Origin: Parolsenella massiliensis
GTDB lineage: Bacteria > Actinomycetota > Coriobacteriia > Coriobacteriales > Atopobiaceae
DNA length: 64,000 bases
NCBI RefSeq assembly: GCF_900143685.1
Contig: NZ_LT671675.1
Span: 1,295,985 to 1,359,984, forward strand
Direction of reading: 5' to 3'
The position numbers and the translations under genes were made by a program. Shown here piece after piece: positions 21,764 through 29,896 of this stretch. How positions within the stretch are numbered: the stretch's first letter is position 1; each line of letters opens with the position of its first letter. The notes under the pieces were generated by a model, which was given only the letters and a program-made list of their open reading frames with translations, ran no database searches and had not been told where the DNA came from.

Positions 21764-21807
21764 GGTCTCTCCCATCCCTGACCTGCGTCAGAATGATGTT
21801 TTGCTCA

Positions 21808-21862
21808 AGCGTAGTTCGTTACCGAGAACAACGCTGTCCTCACTATAAGTTAGGTTGCCAAA
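21808..21862. promoter_or_regulatory. Shared motif region in the yqeB/yqeC divergent promoter
   Basis: An imperfect inverted repeat AGCGTAGTT-N10-AACAACGCT (8 of 9), followed by AGTTAGGTTGCCAAA, which touches the yqeC start codon. The modA upstream region has AACAACGCT and AGTTAGGCAACCAAA in the same order, which suggests a common regulator. Confidence 0.5.
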
Positions 21863-22596
21863 TGGATTGTCTGGAAGCGCTCAACATTTCCGCCGGCGAG
21901 GCCAGGGCATCTGGGACCGGGGCGGTGGTGGCCGTCATCGGCAGCGGCGGCAAGTCGACGCTGCTGCGCACGCTGGCGCGCGAAGCCGGCGAGCGCGGGG
22001 GCCGCGTCGTGCTCGCCACGACGACCCACTTCCTGACGTTCGAGGGAATAGCGCTTGTGACCTCGGGAAACATGGGTGACGTCGTTCGCGCGCTCGACGA
22101 GGCGGGTACCGCGTGCGTAGGCACGCCCACCGGCGACGCCCTGGGCAGGCTTGGCGCACCTGCGTTTTCGATGGGCGAGCTCTCGCGTGCGGCAGACCTC
22201 GTGCTCGTGGAGGCGGACGGCTCCAAGCGCCTGCCGCTCAAGGCGCACGCGAGTCACGAGCCCGTCGTGCCATCCGAGGCAACGGTCACGGTCGACGTCG
22301 TGGGAGCGAGCGGGTTCGGCCGCCCCCTGCGCGAGGCGATGCACCGCTTTGAGCTCGCATGCGAGCGGCTCGGGTTCCATCCCGACGACGCGGCGACGCC
22401 CGAGCTCGTCGCCCGCGTCATGGCCGACGAGATGGCACGGGGGCTCATCGCGCCCACGCACGTCATCGTGAACCAGGCAGAAGGTGCCGAGCGCTTGTCC
22501 TGCGCCCGCCGCTTCGCTGCCGCACTGCGCGAGCAGGGCTGCGAGCTGCCCGTTTTTCTCGGCAGCATCCGGGACGGCAGGCTTGAGCGGGCGTGA
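21862..22596 (+). CDS. yqeC: Selenium-dependent hydroxylase accessory protein YqeC
   Basis: A 244-residue P-loop-containing member of the YqeC family, another marker of selenium-dependent molybdenum hydroxylases. VAVIGSGGKSTLLRTLA (about residues 23-39) is the nucleotide-binding loop, TTTHFLTF follows, and LVLVEADGSKRLPLKAHASHEPV (about 113-135) is the family signature. ATG 21862 has only a weak ribosome site, but homology begins here. The TGA stop lies within a GTGAAC-type palindromic repeat. It is divergent from yqeB. Confidence 0.9.
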   Translation: MDCLEALNISAGEARASGTGAVVAVIGSGGKSTLLRTLAREAGERGGRVVLATTTHFLTFEGIALVTSGNMGDVVRALDEAGTACVGTPTGDALGRLGAPAFSMGELSRAADLVLVEADGSKRLPLKAHASHEPVVPSEATVTVDVVGASGFGRPLREAMHRFELACERLGFHPDDAATPELVARVMADEMARGLIAPTHVIVNQAEGAERLSCARRFAAALREQGCELPVFLGSIRDGRLERA

Positions 22597-22616
22597 ACAG
22601 GGGACGTACCCCCCAC
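22593..22616. repeat. Palindromic element overlapping the yqeC stop
   Basis: GTGAACAGGGGACGTAC followed by CCCC, related to the 27-bp element inside modC. The TGA of GTGAAC is the yqeC stop codon. Confidence 0.6.
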
Positions 22617-22629
22617 GGGCCGCGCCGCG

Positions 22630-22962
22630 CTACCCCTCGATGATGCCCTGGGAGCGCAGGGCCGAGAGGTACTCCTCGCCTCGGGGCGTCACGCAGTAGA
22701 GGTTCTCGAGCTGGCCGCCGTTGGGCAGGTGCGCCTCGGCCACACTCACGATGCCTTGCTCGGCCATGGACCTGATGGAGCGGCGCACGGTTCCCTCGCT
22801 CTTGTCCGTCGCCTCGGCAAGGCCGGCGAGCGAGAGCGCCACGGGCCGCGAGGCATGGCCGGCCGCACCCACGGATTGGTGCTCAATCTCCAGCAGGACC
22901 TGGAGCATCGTCTCGTTCATGCGGGTGGAGGCCCACCCGGTCGCCCTGACCTTCTTTGCCAT
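22630..22962 (-). CDS. Small winged-helix DNA-binding protein
   Basis: A 110-residue regulator with one winged helix: VALSLAGLAEATDKSEGTVRRSI is the helix-turn-helix, followed by MAEQGIVSVAEAH and a wing ending YCVTPRGEEYLS. I cannot name the subfamily. Its place between yqeC and the selenium genes makes local regulation plausible. ATG 22962 is preferred, with a weak ribosome site; a GTG at 23013 is in frame and lies directly downstream (in reading sense) of a run of nine Gs, so the N-terminus is uncertain. Confidence 0.65.
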   Translation of the reverse strand: MAKKVRATGWASTRMNETMLQVLLEIEHQSVGAAGHASRPVALSLAGLAEATDKSEGTVRRSIRSMAEQGIVSVAEAHLPNGGQLENLYCVTPRGEEYLSALRSQGIIEG

Positions 22963-23076
22963 GCCCAGTCCAAGTCGCCAGCGAATGATGCGCGTTTCGT
23001 CGGCGAAATACACTACCCCCCCCCGAGCGCTTTTGTCAACGCCGGAAGGGGTGCCCGCATGGGCCGAGCACGGCCT

Positions 23077-24237
23077 TTACGCGGCCGCGACCTCGCGGAT
23101 GGCATCCACGGCCACGTCAATCTCCTCGGGCGTGGTGAACCAGCTGGTCGAGAGGCGCACGATGCCCTGACGCTCCGTGCCGAGCGCGCGGTGCATGAGC
23201 GGGGCGCAGTGGGCGCCGGGGCGCGTCGCGATGCCCCAGCCATCCATGAGGGCGTCGGACACCTCGGCCGAGTCGAGCCCGTCCACGTTAAGCGCCACGA
23301 CGCCCGTACGCACGTCCGTCTCGCCCGCCTCGAACGCGGGCCAGTCGCCGTAGACGGTGACGCCGGGGGCGTCGCGCACGCCCTCGTACAGGCGCCGGGC
23401 CATGGCAAGCTCGTGGGCACTCATGGCCTCCACACCGCCGTTCTCGGCAATAAATCGCAGGCCAGCGGCCAGGCCGGCAATCCCGTGCCCATTGAGCGTG
23501 CCCGCCTCCAGGCGCGTGGGCCACCCGAGGGGCTGCTGCTCGTCGAAGCTACGCACGCCCGTACCGCCCACGTTCCAGGGGGCCACGTCCACGCCGGGCA
23601 TGACGGCCGCGCCACCCGTGCCCTGCGGCCCCATGAGCGCCTTGTGGCCCGTGAAGCACACGACGTCGAGGCCCTGCTCGGCCATGTTCATGGGGACGAG
23701 GCCCGCCGCCTGCGACGCGTCCACGACGACGAGCGCCCCCGCCGCGTGCGCGAGCGCCGCCACGGCCGCCACGTCCACGACGTTTCCCGTGACGTTGGAC
23801 GCCGCCGTCACGACGACGGCACGCGTGCCCGGCGTCACGAGGCGTGCGAGCTCGTCCATGTCGAGCCGGCCATACGCGTCACACCCGGCATGCTCCACGG
23901 TGACGCCGCGCTCGGCGGCAAGCCGGTTGAGCGGCCGCAGCACCGAGTTGTGCTCGAGCACCGTCGTGACGACGCGGTCGCCCTCGCCCACGATACCGTT
24001 GATGACGCAGTTGAGCGCCTCGGTGGAGTTGGGGGCAAACGCCACGTGGTCCGCGCGCGGGCAGCCGAGAATCTCGGCCACGAGCTCGCGGCAGCCGTGG
24101 ATGACGCGCGCGGCGCCCATGGCGCCCGCACCCGCCCCTCGCCCGGCGTTTCCGAGCGTGCCCATCGCCGCCACGACGGCATCGATGACCGCCTGCGGCT
24201 TGCGCATCGTCGTCGCCGCGTTGTCCAGGTAGATCAT
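23077..24237 (-). CDS. Class V aminotransferase, cysteine desulfurase/selenocysteine lyase-like
   Basis: A 386-residue PLP enzyme of the NifS/CsdB class. MIYLDNAATT begins the protein; the PLP lysine is in CFTGHKALMGPQGTGG (about residue 200). The catalytic-loop Cys lies in RPGAHCAPLMHRALGT near the C-terminus, the position that accepts sulfur or selenium. Enzymes of this type beside yedF and selD are thought to supply selenium for selenophosphate. It starts at ATG 24237 after AAAGGAA. A palindromic repeat separates it from the DUF3343 gene. Confidence 0.85.
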   Translation of the reverse strand: MIYLDNAATTMRKPQAVIDAVVAAMGTLGNAGRGAGAGAMGAARVIHGCRELVAEILGCPRADHVAFAPNSTEALNCVINGIVGEGDRVVTTVLEHNSVLRPLNRLAAERGVTVEHAGCDAYGRLDMDELARLVTPGTRAVVVTAASNVTGNVVDVAAVAALAHAAGALVVVDASQAAGLVPMNMAEQGLDVVCFTGHKALMGPQGTGGAAVMPGVDVAPWNVGGTGVRSFDEQQPLGWPTRLEAGTLNGHGIAGLAAGLRFIAENGGVEAMSAHELAMARRLYEGVRDAPGVTVYGDWPAFEAGETDVRTGVVALNVDGLDSAEVSDALMDGWGIATRPGAHCAPLMHRALGTERQGIVRLSTSWFTTPEEIDVAVDAIREVAAA

Positions 24238-24252
24238 GGCATTCCTTTCAGA

Positions 24253-24289
24253 AAGGGGTGACAAAGGGACTGTCCCCTTGTCACCCCTT
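24253..24289. repeat. Dispersed palindromic element (GGGGTGACAA type)
   Basis: Near-perfect inverted arms: 24253-24270 with 24271-24289, no loop, GGGTGACAA at one end and TTGTCACCC at the other. It lies between the CsdB-like and DUF3343 genes. Confidence 0.75.
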
Positions 24290-24292
24290 GTC

Positions 24293-24550
24293 TCATCCGC
24301 GGACGAACTCGAGCATCTCGATGACGGTCATGGCCTCGACCTCGACGCCCGCCTCGGCAAGCGCCGATGCCAGCACGCCCTGGTCCTCGGGCGCCGCCTT
24401 CCACGCAAGGCCGCAGCCGGCCCTGACCTCGCCCGGGACGGGAATCATGCGCCCGGGCAGCCCCTGGGCGCCGCACAGCTCCTCGCAGGCCATGGCAGCG
24501 GCCGTGGTGGGAAACGTCACGACAAGCGCGGGCTTTCGCACGCGAGGCAT
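24293..24550 (-). CDS. DUF3343 domain protein (putative sulfur/selenium carrier)
   Basis: An 85-residue protein matching the DUF3343 pattern: LVVTFPTTAAAMACEELC at the start, PGRMIPVPGEVRAGCGLAW with a conserved Cys in the middle (about residue 46), and an acidic C-terminal helix. DUF3343 proteins accompany YedF in selenium-using anaerobes and are proposed selenium or sulfur carriers; biochemical proof is lacking. It begins two bases after the yedF stop, so it is coupled to it. Confidence 0.8.
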   Translation of the reverse strand: MPRVRKPALVVTFPTTAAAMACEELCGAQGLPGRMIPVPGEVRAGCGLAWKAAPEDQGVLASALAEAGVEVEAMTVIEMLEFVRG

Positions 24551-24552
24551 GC

Positions 24553-25176
24553 CTAGGGCCTCACGACGACGGAGGCACCTGTGAGCTTCTCGGTGATGAC
24601 GTACATGTTCGTGACCTCGCCCACGGCGAGCTTGTCGGTGAGGCCGTAGTGGTCAAGGCAGGTGCCGCACGTGAGAATCTCCACGCCGGCGGCGGCGAGG
24701 TTCTTGAGGTCCTCGAGCGAGGCCGACCCCTCGCAGGTCAGACGAGCGCCACCGTTGTAGAACAGCATGGTGCGCGGCAGCTCGGGCAGCTGGGTGAGCG
24801 AGAAGATGAAGCCCTTGATGAGCTTGTGGCCCAGCTCGTCGTCGCCGATGCCCATCGCGTCGCTCGCCACCTGAATGACCACTCCGTTGCCCGCGGGCGC
24901 GGCGCACGTGGCGGCCTCGGGCTCGCCGGCGGCAACCTCCACGGCCTCGGTGGCCGTGGTCGTGACGTGCCACTCCTTCTCGGCCGTCTGCTCCACGGCG
25001 CTCGCGCAGCCCTTCGACGTCGCCATGCGGCCGAGGTTCTCGACGGCGACCTTGTTGTCCACGATCGTCTCGACCTCGCCGGGGCCACCAAGCGCGCCCA
25101 GCGCCTTGAGCGTCTTCACGACGGGGATGGGGCACGCGTCGCCGCGCGCGTCGATGACCAGCTTGTTCTCGGACAT
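24553..25176 (-). CDS. yedF: Selenium metabolism protein YedF
   Basis: A 207-residue protein with two domains. Residues 1-75 are a TusA/SirA-type domain with the C-P-x-P motif (DARGDACPIPVVK, Cys15). Residues about 110-205 are a DsrE-like domain with LFYNGGARLTCEGS and the Cys pair of ILTCGTCLDHYG. This arrangement is the selenium-specific YedF family, which travels with SelD. The TusA-like cysteine suggests handling of persulfide or selenide. ATG 25176 follows AAGGAACGCAC. Upstream, towards selD, lies a palindromic repeat. Confidence 0.9.
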   Translation of the reverse strand: MSENKLVIDARGDACPIPVVKTLKALGALGGPGEVETIVDNKVAVENLGRMATSKGCASAVEQTAEKEWHVTTTATEAVEVAAGEPEAATCAAPAGNGVVIQVASDAMGIGDDELGHKLIKGFIFSLTQLPELPRTMLFYNGGARLTCEGSASLEDLKNLAAAGVEILTCGTCLDHYGLTDKLAVGEVTNMYVITEKLTGASVVVRP

Positions 25177-25201
25177 GTGCGTTCCTTTCTCGAATGCGAG
25201 C

Positions 25202-25231
25202 GCCCGCAAGGGGACCGTCCCCCTTGTGGGC
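25202..25231. repeat. Dispersed palindromic element (GGGGAC type)
   Basis: GCCCGCAAGGGGAC pairs with the following CGTCCCCCTTGTGGGC (one mismatch plus wobble). It lies between selD and yedF, directly after the selD stop. Confidence 0.7.
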
Positions 25232-26275
25232 CTACATCGTCACGTGTACAGAATAGTCCCCGCGCGGCGCGGCCTGACCCACCACGGCGGCGGGCTGGCC
25301 GAGCTCGCGAAGGCGCGAGACGTACTCGTCGGCCTCATCGGCAGGCAGGGCCACGAGGAGGCCGCCGGAGGTCTGCGGGTCGAACAGGACGTCGGACAGG
25401 TCGAGCGGCACGTCGTCAGCGATCGAGACGCGCGAGCCAAAGAAGTCGCGGTTGCGGTAGGCGCCGGCCGGGATGAGGCCCATGCTCGCCATCTCGCGGG
25501 CGCGCGCCATGACGGGCACGGCGCCGGCACGGATCTCGAGCGTGACGTCGCTTGCCTCGGCCATCTCGCAGCCATGTCCCATGAGCGAGAAGCCCGTGAC
25601 GTCGGTGGCGGCGTGGGCGTGAAGGCCGCAGAGCGCCTCGGCACCGTACTTGTTGAGGCAGATCATGGAGTCCGTGGCGACCTTGACGCCGGCGTCGTCG
25701 AGAAGCTCGGCCTTGTGGGCCGTCGTGAGGATGCCGGTGCCGAGTGCCTTCGTGAGCACGAGCGCGTCGCCTGCGCGAGCGCCGCCGTTGGCGAGCATGT
25801 GGTCAAGCTCCACGAAGCCCGTGACGGCCAGGCCGAACTTGGGCTCGTGGTCGTTGATGGAGTGGCCGCCGGCCACGATGACGCCCGCCTCGCGGCACTT
25901 GTCGGCACCGCCCGCCAGAATCTGGCCGGCGACCTCGATGCCCAGGCAGTTGGGGAAGCACAGCAGGTTCAGCGCGAGCACGGGATGCCCGCCCATGGCC
26001 CAGACGTCTGACAGGGCGTTCGCGGCCGCCACCTGGCCAAACAGGAACGGGTCGTCCACCATCGGCGGGAAGAAGTCCGTGGTCCCCACAAGGCCGCGGC
26101 CGTCTCCCAGGTCGTAGACGTAGGCGTCATCGGAGGCGTCAAAGCCCACGAGCAGGCGGTCGTCCTCCAGGCGCGGCAGATCCGCGAGCACCTGCGAGAG
26201 GTAGCCCGGCGCGAGCTTGGCCGCACAGCCCGCCGCCTCCACGAGCTCCGTGAGCCTCACTCCGGTCATATCCAT
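25232..26275 (-). CDS. selD: Selenide, water dikinase SelD
   Basis: A 347-residue enzyme making selenophosphate from selenide and ATP. The catalytic Cys17 and Lys20 are present in AAGCAAKLAPG, in the same positions as in E. coli SelD, so this is the Cys rather than selenocysteine form. ATP-binding segments include GTTDFFPPMVDDP, DVWAMGG and VIVAGGHSINDHEPKFGLAVTG; the C-terminal half has DVTGFSLMGHG and FDPQTSGGLLVALP. ATG 26275 follows GGGGAGAG. No selA or selB is visible, so it may be an orphan SelD for cofactor selenium. Confidence 0.95.
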   Translation of the reverse strand: MDMTGVRLTELVEAAGCAAKLAPGYLSQVLADLPRLEDDRLLVGFDASDDAYVYDLGDGRGLVGTTDFFPPMVDDPFLFGQVAAANALSDVWAMGGHPVLALNLLCFPNCLGIEVAGQILAGGADKCREAGVIVAGGHSINDHEPKFGLAVTGFVELDHMLANGGARAGDALVLTKALGTGILTTAHKAELLDDAGVKVATDSMICLNKYGAEALCGLHAHAATDVTGFSLMGHGCEMAEASDVTLEIRAGAVPVMARAREMASMGLIPAGAYRNRDFFGSRVSIADDVPLDLSDVLFDPQTSGGLLVALPADEADEYVSRLRELGQPAAVVGQAAPRGDYSVHVTM

Positions 26276-26336
26276 GTCGCTCTCCCCTCCCTGCGCGGGC
26301 GACACCTCGCCACACGCGATCGTTCACGTAACCGTT

Positions 26337-27101
26337 CTACCCCACGAGCGAAAGCGCGCGTTCGGCGGCCCCGAGCGCGCCGGCAAAGCGCGCGAGCGGA
26401 CACGTCGAGACGGGCGAGCTGAGAAGCGCACCCAGGCGCTCTACCACGTAGTCGTTCTCGCACAGGCCGCCCGTAAGGAAGTACGGCGCCGCGCCCTGGC
26501 CCGCGAGCGCGGCCACGCGCGAGACCACCGACTCGATGATGCCATGGGCGATGTCTTCCCTCGGCTTGCCGGCACCCACGAGACTGATGACCTCCGACTC
26601 GGCAAACACCGTGCACATGCTGGAGATCTTGACGCCGTCGCCGGCGCGCGCGAGTTCTGCGAGCTCACCTTGGCTGACGCCGAGTCGATCGGCCATAACC
26701 TCGAGGAAGCGGCCCGTTCCCGCGGCGCACTTGTCGTTCATCTGGAACTTGGTCACGCGGCCGCCGCGCAGCTGGATGACCTTCGTGTCCTGGCCGCCCA
26801 CGTCGATGACGGTACCGTCAGGCCCAAACAGGTGCGCCGCGCCCACGCCGTGGCACGTGATCTCGGTCACGACCTTGTCCGCGTATGGCACGGCGACGCG
26901 CCCGTAGCCGGTGGCCACGACGCGTGTCTCGGGAGCCGCCACGTCGACGCCCTGGCCCGCCAGCCACGATGCCACGCGCTCGGCCGCGTCCACGCTCGAG
27001 AACCCCGTGGACATGACCTCGTGCGCGACGAGCTCGCCGGCCTCGTCGAGCACCACGGCCTTCGTCGCCGTGGACCCTATGTCGATACCTACGCCAAGCA
27101 T
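26337..27101 (-). CDS. 2-hydroxyacyl-CoA dehydratase-type activase (BadF/HgdC family)
   Basis: A 254-residue ATP-dependent electron-injecting activase of the ASKHA fold. The phosphate-binding GIDIGSTATKAVVLD is at the N-terminus and VIDVGGQDTKVI follows. The bridging [4Fe-4S] cysteines of the dimer lie in MNDKCAAGTGRF and ISSMCTVFAESE, and a second phosphate loop is FLTGGLCEN. Such proteins hydrolyse ATP to push a low-potential electron into a partner. The partners here are the double-cubane proteins encoded upstream. It starts at ATG 27101 after GGAG, in operon order DCCP-DCCP-activase-selD. Confidence 0.92.
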   Translation of the reverse strand: MLGVGIDIGSTATKAVVLDEAGELVAHEVMSTGFSSVDAAERVASWLAGQGVDVAAPETRVVATGYGRVAVPYADKVVTEITCHGVGAAHLFGPDGTVIDVGGQDTKVIQLRGGRVTKFQMNDKCAAGTGRFLEVMADRLGVSQGELAELARAGDGVKISSMCTVFAESEVISLVGAGKPREDIAHGIIESVVSRVAALAGQGAAPYFLTGGLCENDYVVERLGALLSSPVSTCPLARFAGALGAAERALSLVG

Positions 27102-27178
27102 GTGCGTCTCCGTTTCGCGGTGGGCAAAGGCATGCCAAGGGAACCCGTCCCCAATGGCACGTTAAATCACTGAGGTTG

Positions 27179-27265
27179 CCAGGTACCCCAGATGGGGAGC
27201 GACAATCCCGACGCCGCGTGCCGAGGCACGCAAGGAGGGTTGGAGCCCCCAGATGGGGTGCCTGG
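27179..27265 (-). repeat. 87-bp structured repeat, copy 1 (3' of the second double-cubane gene)
   Basis: 82 of 87 bases match copy 2 (28518-28604), and both begin five bases after a stop codon. Outer arms CCAGG/CCTGG here are CCGGG/CCCGG in copy 2, a compensatory pair. Inside are two CCCCAGATGGGG hairpins and a central GCGTGCC/GGCACGC hairpin. It may be an RNA element or a BIME-like mobile palindrome. Confidence 0.85.
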
Positions 27266-27270
27266 TGGCC

Positions 27271-28434
27271 TCAGATGGTTTCGATGAAGGCGGCGATGCG
27301 CGTGTCTATCTGGCCCTGGTCGCCGGCGCTGTAGTCGGTCTCGATCTTCATGTAGGGGATGCCCACGCCCTCGACGGCCGCCTGCATACGCGCGCTTTCG
27401 ACGTTGAAGGTGTGGCAGGCCGTGAGCACGCTCTCGATGACGCCGTCCACGTGATATTTCTCGCACATGGCGAGCGTGTTGTCCATGCGACCGTCGTTGG
27501 GCGTCATGACCGAGCAGTTGATGTCCAGGTAGCGGTCGGCGATGGCGGCGAGGATGTCGGGGGCATCGGCGTTGACCATCATGGACGCCGTGCGCTCGCC
27601 GGAGCAGTCGTCCATGCACACGACCACGCCGCCGTTGCGCTCGATGGTGCGCCCGATCTTGTTGATGACGCCACCCACGGGGCAGCCCGTTATGAGGATG
27701 CGTTTGGCGCTCGCAGGGATGGGGCGCTCGCCCGCCTCGTAGGCCGCGCGGCGCTCGGCCACCGTCTGCTCCACCTTGCGCGTGAAGTCCTCGACGTCGA
27801 AGTTGAACGTGCCGGCGAACATCGTGCTCATGAGCTCGACGCCGCCCATGACCGGCGGATCTGCGGCCTGCAGCTCGAACATTGCAAGCTGGGCGGCACG
27901 CAGGCGGTTGCGGCGGCGGGCCGCGGCGCGCAGGTCGTCATCGGTGATCGTGATGCCATAGAGCTGCTCGAGACGCTCCTTGAGCAGGCGGCACTCCTCG
28001 CGCCAGCCCTGCCGCTCCCAGGCACGGTCGCGTCCCTGGGGCAGGCGCAGGATGTGGAGGGGCTTGAGCTCGCTCAGCAGCTCGTACATCTTCTTCTTGC
28101 CGCCACAGGTGGTCTCGCCGATGATCAGGTCGCTGAAGTAGGTGAACGGGCACTTCTGCGAGTAGGCGAAGCCGTACGTGGACTTGATGAGCGGGCAGAG
28201 GTTGGCCGGCAGCACCTTCTCGGCCTCCGGAATCACCTCGTCGGACGTGCCGCACAAGGCCACGCCCGCAGCCCCTGCCGCATCAATGATCTCCAGCGGT
28301 GTGTAGCTGCAGAGATATCCCACGAGGCGGTTTCCCGCCTGCTTGTAGTCCTTCACGCGGATGAAGCTCGCGCGGCGCTGCTCGTTGAACTCCTCGAACG
28401 TGCGCGGCAGCGGCTGCTCGGCGATGTCGGTCAT
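27271..28434 (-). CDS. Double-cubane-cluster-type anaerobic reductase (2-hydroxyacyl-CoA dehydratase D family), paralogue 1
   Basis: A 387-residue protein of the HgdB/YjiM superfamily. Conserved cysteines fit the double-cubane [8Fe-9S] proteins: [41 protein letters not shown] and the C-terminal CMDDCSGER. Such proteins take electrons from an activase at ATP cost and reduce small molecules; the physiological substrate is unknown. A true 2-hydroxyacyl-CoA dehydratase would normally have two different subunits working together, so that alternative remains open with the neighbouring paralogue. It starts at ATG 28434 after GGAGGAG. Confidence 0.85.
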
Positions 28435-28517
28435 TCTCGTCTCCTCCGGTCAACGGGGCGCCCAAGGCGCCAGAGACCCTTGGACGCCCCTAAGAGAGCT
28501 ACATCTTCTGAGAGCAA

Positions 28518-28604
28518 CCGGGTGCCCCAGATGGGGAGCGACAAGCCCGACGCCGCGTGCCGAGGCACGCAAGGAGGGTTGGGGCCCCCAGATGGGGTGC
28601 CCGG
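28518..28604 (-). repeat. 87-bp structured repeat, copy 2 (3' of the first double-cubane gene)
   Basis: Near-identical to 27179-27265. It starts five bases after the stop codon at 28610-28612 on the coding strand and lies between the two paralogues. Confidence 0.85.
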
Positions 28605-28609
28605 GGCTC

Positions 28610-29896
28610 TCAGATCGTCTCGAGGAACGCCTCGATGCGAGTCTGGAGCTGACCGGCGTCCTCACCGGCGTAGTCGGTGGTGATGTGCATGAACAGCACG
28701 CCGGCCTCCTCGGCGGCCTTCTCGACGTTGAAGGCCTCCATCTCGTAGAGCGTGCAGAACTGCAGCGAGCAGTCGATGATGCCGTCTGCGTGCAGGTCGC
28801 GGGCCATGGTCACGATGTCTTCCATGCGCTGGTCGTTGGGCGTGAACACCGCGCAGCTGATCTTGAAGTAGCGCTCGGCGATTCGGTCGAGCATCTCGTC
28901 GACCGTGGTGCCGTCCTCCTCGACGAGGTCCTTGTAGTAGCGCGAGCCCGTGCAGCACTCCTCGCCCACCACGATGCCGCCGGCCTTCTCGATGATGTTG
29001 TAGAGCTTCCAGTTGGGGACGGCCATGGGCGTGCCGGTGTAGAGGATGCGCTTGGTGCCCGCAGGTGTCGCGCCCTCGCCAGCCGCCACGCGGGCCTCGC
29101 ACTCCTCGGCCATGGCGTTGATGGCGCCCGTGAGGCGCGGCGTGTCGTCCATGAAAGCGGCCTGCACCGTGAGCAGGCTGTCGAGGCCGCTGATGGGCGC
29201 GGGGTCCGCGGCGCGCGTGGCCGCAAGGCGGCGCAGTGCCAGGCGCTTCTCGTTCACCTCGTGGATGGCATGGGCGAGGCGCTCGGGCGTAAGCGCAACG
29301 CCGCACTCCTGTTCGAGCTTGGCGGCGAGCTTCTTGACCTCGGCCTTCCAGTCCTCGAGCGTGCGCTCGTTGTGGACGTTGGGGATGTCGACCACGTACA
29401 TGTCCTTCTGCGTGGCGAAGAACTCGTAGGCCTTCTTCTTGCCGTCGCAGGTGTTCTCGCCCACCACCAGGTCGCTCGACTCGATGTAGGGGCAGACCTG
29501 GCCCAGCTTGAAGCCCGCGAAGCTCTTGATGAGCGGGCAGGTGTTGCGCGGCAGGTGCTCCTCGACCTTGTCGGTGGCCCAGTCGGCGCCCGAGCACAGG
29601 CCCACGGGGATGCCGTCCACGGCAAGCACGATCTCCTCGGGCACGTAGAGGCAGAACGATCCCACGATCTTGGTGGCCTCGCCAGCGGCCTTCTTGTCGA
29701 GCATCTCCTTGATACGGCCGCTGTGGATGTTGGTGGCAACAAAGTCCAGGTAGCTCGTGGAGGCAGGGCGATTATTCTGCCTGAGGAACATATCTCCGTA
29801 CATCTGGCCCACGGCACCCAGCAGCATGTCGTGGTCCTCGAGGTTCATGCCGAGCGACTCCCACATCGGGTGATAGTCGTAGCTCTCTTCTGCCAT
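28610..29896 (-). CDS. Double-cubane-cluster-type anaerobic reductase, paralogue 2
   Basis: A 428-residue paralogue of the downstream gene, with the same cysteine landmarks (GLCSGADWATD, LPRNTCPLIKSFAGF, LVVGENTCDGKKKAYE, VGEECCTGSRYY and ISCAVFTPNDQRM) and an extra N-terminal 40 residues. Protein similarity to paralogue 1 is only moderate, unlike the nearly identical 3' repeats. It is first in the operon, with ATG 29896 after AGGAGAG. The two could form a heteromer or be alternative partners for the single activase. Confidence 0.85.
   Translation of the reverse strand: MAEESYDYHPMWESLGMNLEDHDMLLGAVGQMYGDMFLRQNNRPASTSYLDFVATNIHSGRIKEMLDKKAAGEATKIVGSFCLYVPEEIVLAVDGIPVGLCSGADWATDKVEEHLPRNTCPLIKSFAGFKLGQVCPYIESSDLVVGENTCDGKKKAYEFFATQKDMYVVDIPNVHNERTLEDWKAEVKKLAAKLEQECGVALTPERLAHAIHEVNEKRLALRRLAATRAADPAPISGLDSLLTVQAAFMDDTPRLTGAINAMAEECEARVAAGEGATPAGTKRILYTGTPMAVPNWKLYNIIEKAGGIVVGEECCTGSRYYKDLVEEDGTTVDEMLDRIAERYFKISCAVFTPNDQRMEDIVTMARDLHADGIIDCSLQFCTLYEMEAFNVEKAAEEAGVLFMHITTDYAGEDAGQLQTRIEAFLETI

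What the first reader, a model, noticed from the sequence alone, without database searches (positions are those of the whole stretch)
27179..28604. Near-identical 87-bp structured element five bases after each double-cubane stop codon
27179-27265 and 28518-28604 share 82 of 87 bases, while the preceding genes are only moderately similar paralogues. Outer arms are CCAGG/CCTGG in one and CCGGG/CCCGG in the other, a compensatory pair. Each has two CCCC-N4-GGGG hairpins in inverted arrangement around a central GCGTGC/GCACGC hairpin. Constraint or recent copying acts on the element, not on the genes.
Basis: partly seen in the sequence, partly recalled or inferred. Interest (0 to 1): 0.7.

Follow-up and report, generated by a model that had tools for sequence, protein, structure and literature searches.

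The report
Dispersed hairpin repeat after stop codons
The two near-identical pieces are members of a large, apparently undescribed family of long DNA hairpins that sit directly behind genes, run with the replication fork, and are shared by gut Coriobacteriales and sulphur-cycling bacteria, so they are not a signal specific to the two genes where they were first seen.

Summary
In detail: 82 of 87 bases are identical, each copy lies five bases after a TGA stop, and the two genes encode proteins only 38% identical. It is one long imperfect hairpin; the CCCC and GGGG blocks pair across the element, and AUCU is a conserved internal loop. In both copies the outer stem includes the stop codon. It is not specific to double-cubane genes: of 22 orthologues whose 3' end I read, only 2 are followed by a copy. 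A covariance model finds the family in 187 of 395 Coriobacteriales genomes, up to 73 match rows in one, and in Desulfobulbales-type records. Copies follow stop codons of pheS, gyrB, argJ-like and many other genes, with massive covariation (408 both-side changes, slid controls 64-127), and are almost all co-oriented with replication (34 of 34 in one genome where genes are 67%). Best reading: a long REP-like palindromic repeat, probably dispersed through single-stranded DNA, no enzyme identified. RAYT transposases and Rfam families do not account for it.

The parts
27179..27265 (-). Copy a, the 87-bp core of the element, 3' of double-cubane gene 1
   Evidence: R2 score 81.0 bits
27170..27274 (-). 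Copy a with the outer stem CUGAGG/CCUCAG, which includes the stop codon
   Evidence: fold; helix count
28518..28604 (-). Copy b, the 87-bp core, 3' of double-cubane gene 2
   Evidence: R2 score 73.0 bits
28507..28614 (-). Copy b with the outer stem UCUGAGAGC/GCUCUCAGA, which includes the stop codon
   Evidence: fold; helix count
27251..27254 (-). First AUCU, holding half of the conserved UC/UC internal loop (copy a); partner at 27190-27193
   Evidence: columns 23-26 and 88-91 of the 47-sequence alignment
27271..28434 (-). Double-cubane-cluster anaerobic reductase 1 (HGD-D family), gene before copy a
   Evidence: NF040772 477.7 bits over cut-off 350; PF06050
28610..29896 (-). Double-cubane-cluster anaerobic reductase 2, gene before copy b
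   Evidence: NF040772 466.9 bits; PF06050
26337..27101 (-). Acyl-CoA dehydratase activase-type ATPase, next gene downstream of copy a
   Evidence: TIGR00241 225.4 bits

Best explanation
The two copies belong to a family of long, imperfect palindromic repeats: one hairpin of about 109 nt with roughly 40 covarying pairs and two conserved symmetric internal loops, CA/CA and UC/UC. In Eggerthellaceae a second hairpin of 11-12 bp lies just upstream. It is a REP-like, non-coding, dispersed element that lies directly 3' of stop codons and points with transcription and with the replication fork. Shown: structure, covariation, dispersal, position, orientation. Inferred: it spreads as a folded single DNA strand, entering the lagging-strand template behind genes through an enzyme not identified here; once resident it forms the 3' hairpin of the upstream message and may slow 3' decay or set the boundary between operon genes. 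The near-identity of the window's two copies is then recent copying or gene conversion between neighbours.
For: Dispersal: 4 distinct copies in this genome (two here, one pheS-pheT, one histidine kinase-response regulator); 187 of 395 order genomes, 52 of 123 genera; Desulfobulbales-type records with several copies each. Structure: 85.3% of cells paired against 30-44% for slid controls, 408 both-side changes against 64-127. Position: of 69 hits with a predicted upstream gene 62 follow a co-directional gene, 53 of those with the model start at -22 to +20 nt from the stop; second set 65 of 83 co-directional, 46 of 65 within 55 nt. Orientation: 34/34, 33/38, 24/25 and 7/8 co-oriented with the fork in four genomes, against 182/273 genes in the first, p about 1e-6. 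Wobble: in paired columns A-C/C-A is at least as common as G-T/T-G in all three sets (87:29, 106:80, 59:36), not what selection on the gene-strand RNA alone predicts. Within-genome near-copies at separate loci, e.g. G276 2312183 and 2789250.
Against: No transposase was found: Y1 transposase hits are absent from three copy-rich genomes and none of 18 Y1 loci carries a significant copy (one R2 hit at E 0.13). No target duplication or clean empty site was demonstrated. Some sites are kept across genera (pheS-pheT in g1, g28, g33; gyrB-gyrA in g28, g33), which looks like retention for function. In pheS, a UAG-to-UGA stop change is matched in the 3' flank, which fits selection on RNA pairing. Fork orientation is partly confounded with lying behind leading-strand genes.
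Confidence: 0.55

Rival explanations
1. A vertically kept cis-acting RNA hairpin at mRNA 3' ends (processing, RNase protection or gene-to-gene uncoupling in operons), spread by occasional gene conversion rather than by transposition.
For: Fixed position after stops and in the gene's direction; same sites across genera; outer stem pairs with the stop codon and follows stop-codon changes in pheS; conserved internal loops.
Against: G-U pairs are scarce and A-C outnumbers them on the gene strand; fork orientation exceeds gene bias; very uneven copy number, 5 to 73 match rows in 8 genomes that have any; no match in 208 of 395 order genomes (only 9 candidates scored per genome).
Confidence: 0.3
2. 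A regulatory RNA of the double-cubane/hgd genes.
For: Both double-cubane genes in the window have a copy, and the orthologue in G059 has one.
Against: 27 of 140 family genomes have the gene-1 orthologue; of the 22 loci whose 3' end I read only the window's own and G059's have a copy. Most copies follow other genes.
Confidence: 0.03
3. Known RAYT-mobilised REP elements.
For: Dispersed palindrome just 3' of genes, as reported for REPs (PMC3733652, abstract, passages and section 15 read).
Against: No GTAG tag, stem far longer than 5-13 bp, no Y1 hit in G015, G273, G270, no significant copy beside any of 18 Y1 loci.
Confidence: 0.05
4. Intrinsic terminators.
For: Hairpin just after stop codons; some copies lie between convergent genes.
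Against: No T-run; the scan finds no terminator-like site in 26900-28800; many copies lie inside operons such as pheST and gyrBA.
Confidence: 0.05

Closest known systems
REP elements, GTAG and CGTC super-families (Di Nocera 2013, PMC3733652)
   Same: Non-coding palindromes, dispersed, often within 20 bp of the 3' end of the upstream gene; the CGTC type lacks a known transposase.
   Different: REPs are 20-40 bp with 5-13 bp stems; this is a ~109-nt hairpin with two conserved internal loops. CGACG upstream of the long hairpin reads CGTCG on the other strand, a resemblance only. That paper's main text does not mention Eggerthella, Gordonibacter, Slackia, Coriobacter or Desulfobulbus.
ERIC and other long intergenic palindromes (ERIC recalled; RU-1 of 127 bp seen in an abstract, PMC2759123)
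   Same: Size class, intergenic, imperfect palindrome.
   Different: Different taxa; no sequence comparison was made here.
IS200/IS605 ends (PMC6006769, passages read)
   Same: Folded single-strand recognition and lagging-strand-template targeting would explain fork orientation.
   Different: No transposase gene in the element, and no TnpA linked to it.
Integron attC sites (recalled)
   Same: Imperfect hairpin just after a stop codon, structure conserved more than sequence.
   Different: Conserved ends do not fit the R boxes as recalled; copies lie in housekeeping operons, not cassette arrays.

Membership tests
REP (GTAG/CGTC) | Palindrome close behind coding regions, dispersed | tested here: met
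REP (GTAG/CGTC) | 20-40 bp unit with short stem (5-13 bp) | tested here: not met
   109-position model with 41 pairs
REP (GTAG/CGTC) | Unpaired GTAG or CGTC tag at one end | tested here: inconclusive
   No GTAG; CGACG (CGTCG on the other strand) precedes the long hairpin in many Eggerthellaceae and g9 copies, not in the window copies
REP mobilised by RAYT | Y1 transposase in the genome, flanked by copies | tested here: not met
   absent in 3 of 10 genomes searched, all copy-rich; no significant copy at 18 Y1 loci
Rfam 15 families | Score over a family's gathering threshold | tested here: not met
   only sub-threshold matches, best E 0.31 and 0.11
Intrinsic terminator | GC-rich stem followed by T-run | tested here: not met
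   0 found in 26900-28800; 3' flanks read
Integron attC | R'/R'' boxes and linked integrase | tested here: inconclusive
   Conserved ends seen do not look like the boxes as I recall them; integrase linkage not tested
IS200/IS605-type MITE | Orientation with the lagging-strand template | tested here: met
   (confounded with gene strand)
IS200/IS605-type MITE | Autonomous relative with tnpA and matching ends | tested here: not met
   only 10 genomes searched

The most novel reading that the evidence does not exclude
A mobile family of folded single-strand DNA elements that uses an unknown enzyme, inserts at gene ends in the lagging-strand template, and makes the host gene's own stop codon part of its hairpin, with the 3' flank becoming or staying the complement of the gene end (pheS UAG/CUA and UGA/UCA). 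It has crossed between Actinomycetota and Desulfobacterota.
Probability: 0.25. Interest if true: 0.82.

Novelty: new variant of a known kind. Interest (0 to 1): 0.62.

Why it matters
Long dispersed palindromes are used for typing and can shape mRNA decay, yet in the searches made here none turned up as described for Coriobacteriales (Eggerthella, Gordonibacter, Collinsella, Olsenella relatives), which matter in the gut. A family with this much covariation, conserved internal loops, near-perfect fork orientation and a two-phylum range offers a clear target: find the protein that recognises the CA/CA and UC/UC loops, and decide whether it works on DNA or RNA.

Tried and rejected
Local CCCC-N4-GGGG hairpins: rejected. 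Selenocysteine insertion at the UGA stops: considered because the window holds selD and yedF; set aside because both proteins end where double-cubane proteins end (NF040772 matches to position 372 of 372), and other copies follow UAG or UAA. Double-cubane specificity: rejected. RAYT/Y1 mobilisation: not supported. Rfam: nothing. Phages, plasmids, viral contigs: no match with one copy by blastn or with the motif pattern; these are weak tests, since the stems vary. Literature (8 searches): the listings showed nothing on such an element in Coriobacteriales or Desulfobulbales; three papers were opened (PMC3733652: outline with abstract, passages, section 15; PMC6006769: passages; PMC8040213: passages). 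The supplementary motif tables of PMC8040213 could not be read, so a human-microbiome motif list may hold part of this family.

The tRNA control for wobble (32 G-T, 0 A-C of 567 pairs in 26 tRNAs) is weak, because ARAGORN seems to mark only standard pairs. A first attempt failed (error) and a second used 7 tRNAs only; neither is used.

Rows dropped before counts: opposite-strand matches of the same place (36 of 127); per-genome counts are capped at 9 scored candidates, and rows include some opposite-strand duplicates. Alignment A5 used 47 of the 74 hits analysed, chosen for diversity. Orthologous pheS copies are not independent. The gene calls come from a simple composition rule of mine and mislabel some loci. 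Fork counts use only the rows printed, with rounded genome sizes for three genomes.

Full report
What is there. Both double-cubane genes are on the minus strand, and an 87-bp element starts five bases after each TGA stop (27271 and 28610). The copies differ at 5 of 87 positions, while the two proteins are 38% identical. On the gene strand each folds into one long imperfect hairpin (-53.1 and -52.5 kcal/mol), on the other strand into a more stable one (-63.0 and -62.7); none of 200 shuffles does as well in any case. With flanks, the stem continues outwards through the stop codon: CUGAGG/CCUCAG and UCUGAGAGC/GCUCUCAGA, whose partners in the 3' flank differ between the copies. No terminator- or promoter-like site is found in 26900-28800, and no Rfam family fits.

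It is a dispersed family. Blastn finds only these two as significant matches in the 2.01-Mb genome, but blastn over 140 family genomes finds divergent copies in four others, after unrelated genes. A covariance model from 9 copies (R1) reaches 22 of 140 family genomes and two more copies in this genome, at pheS-pheT and before a response-regulator gene. A second model from 47 copies (R2) gives matches in 187 of 395 genomes of the order, 52 of 123 genera. In eight genomes scanned more deeply there were 7, 62, 73, 67, 47, 20, 5 and 8 match rows (some rows are the opposite strand of the same place). In an even sample of the phylum 22 of 396 genomes match: 21 are of this order, and one is outside it with 42 bits. 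R2 matches nearly all of these 80 loci: the Ornithinibacter one is not matched, and the Protochlamydia and Planctomycetota ones are weak, 31.0 and 47.4 bits.

Structure. In the 47-sequence alignment 85.3% of 1895 cells form the named pairs, with 408 both-side changes and covariation score 0.501; structures slid by one to three columns give 30-44%, 64-127 and at most 0.131. Column pair 27/87 has all four Watson-Crick types with no exception in 46 sequences. AUCU is nearly invariant on both arms and forms a UC/UC loop; CA/CA forms another. In Eggerthellaceae a perfect or near-perfect 11-12-bp hairpin of varied sequence lies 8-11 nt before the long one, right after the stop, and in some genes the stop codon is in its loop.

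Position. Using simple gene calls, 62 of 69 hits with a predicted upstream gene follow a gene on the same strand, and in 53 of those 62 the model start is -22 to +20 nt from the stop (74 hits in all, orthologous copies not thinned). In the second set 65 of 83 do, 46 of 65 within 55 nt (89 hits in all). A group at 36-45 nt is explained by the extra hairpin. Closeness to 3' ends is a known habit of REPs (PMC3733652, section 15).

Orientation with replication. With dnaA as origin, listed copies co-oriented with the fork are 34/34 in G276, 33/38 in G273 (4 of the 5 exceptions lie just past the half-way point from dnaA), 24/25 in G270 and 7/8 in G148; predicted genes in 20 stretches of G276 are 182/273, p about 1e-6. 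By hand the four copies of this genome are also all co-oriented. This fits insertion into the lagging-strand template, as described for IS200/IS605 elements (PMC6006769, abstract passage), but the strand of the upstream gene is a confounder.

DNA or RNA? In paired columns, G-T/T-G against A-C/C-A counts are 29:87 (Atopobiaceae set), 80:106 (Eggerthellaceae and relatives) and 36:59 (Desulfobulbales-type). The model itself favours G-U, so selection on the gene-strand RNA should have left the opposite excess. On the complementary strand the two loops become tandem G-U and tandem G-A, and A-C becomes G-U. Against a pure DNA reading, the outer stem follows the stop codon in orthologous pheS genes: UAG copies carry CUA and most UGA copies carry UCA in the 3' flank, with one mismatched case, L028. 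Over 29 non-g9 copies the mean longest outer helix is 7.1 against 5.3 for swapped flanks; 23 of 29 reach 6 bp, but 40% of swapped pairs also do, because many copies are pheS orthologues.

Not a double-cubane signal. The gene-1 orthologue is in 27 of 140 family genomes. Of the 22 loci whose 3' end I read, only the window's own and G059's carry a copy, and those two copies are of different sequence subtypes.

Enzyme. Y1 transposase hits are absent from three copy-rich genomes, and none of 18 Y1 loci in the others has a significant copy nearby. The mobilising enzyme, if any, is unknown.

Verdict. A new family of long REP-like intergenic palindromes, with strong evidence for conserved structure and dispersal, good evidence for gene and fork orientation, and an open mechanism.

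Noticed in passing
window 21793-29896: The double-cubane pair and its activase sit beside selD, yedF, a cysteine desulfurase and yqeC, a selenium-metabolism neighbourhood; in G059 the double-cubane gene is also near a SelD-like gene.
   Followed up: no
L292 9651-9676; L282 9694-9721; L176: In some Eggerthellaceae genes the last codons form one arm and the stop codon lies in the loop of the short hairpin before the element.
   Followed up: partly
L024 1492-1540: A short version of the element, apparently with the interior deleted and the two arms brought together, after an M20-peptidase-like gene in G059.
   Followed up: no
L158 971-1078 and 1127-1234; L086; L085: Tandem or closely paired copies occur.
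   Followed up: no
L212, L193: Copies also lie directly behind what look like tRNA genes, after a hairpin (read by eye).
   Followed up: no
g9 copies and Gordonibacter copies, 3' side: About 35 bases beyond the hairpin are also conserved in g9 copies, and a CCAACCTG-like tail in Gordonibacter, so the unit may be longer than modelled.
   Followed up: partly
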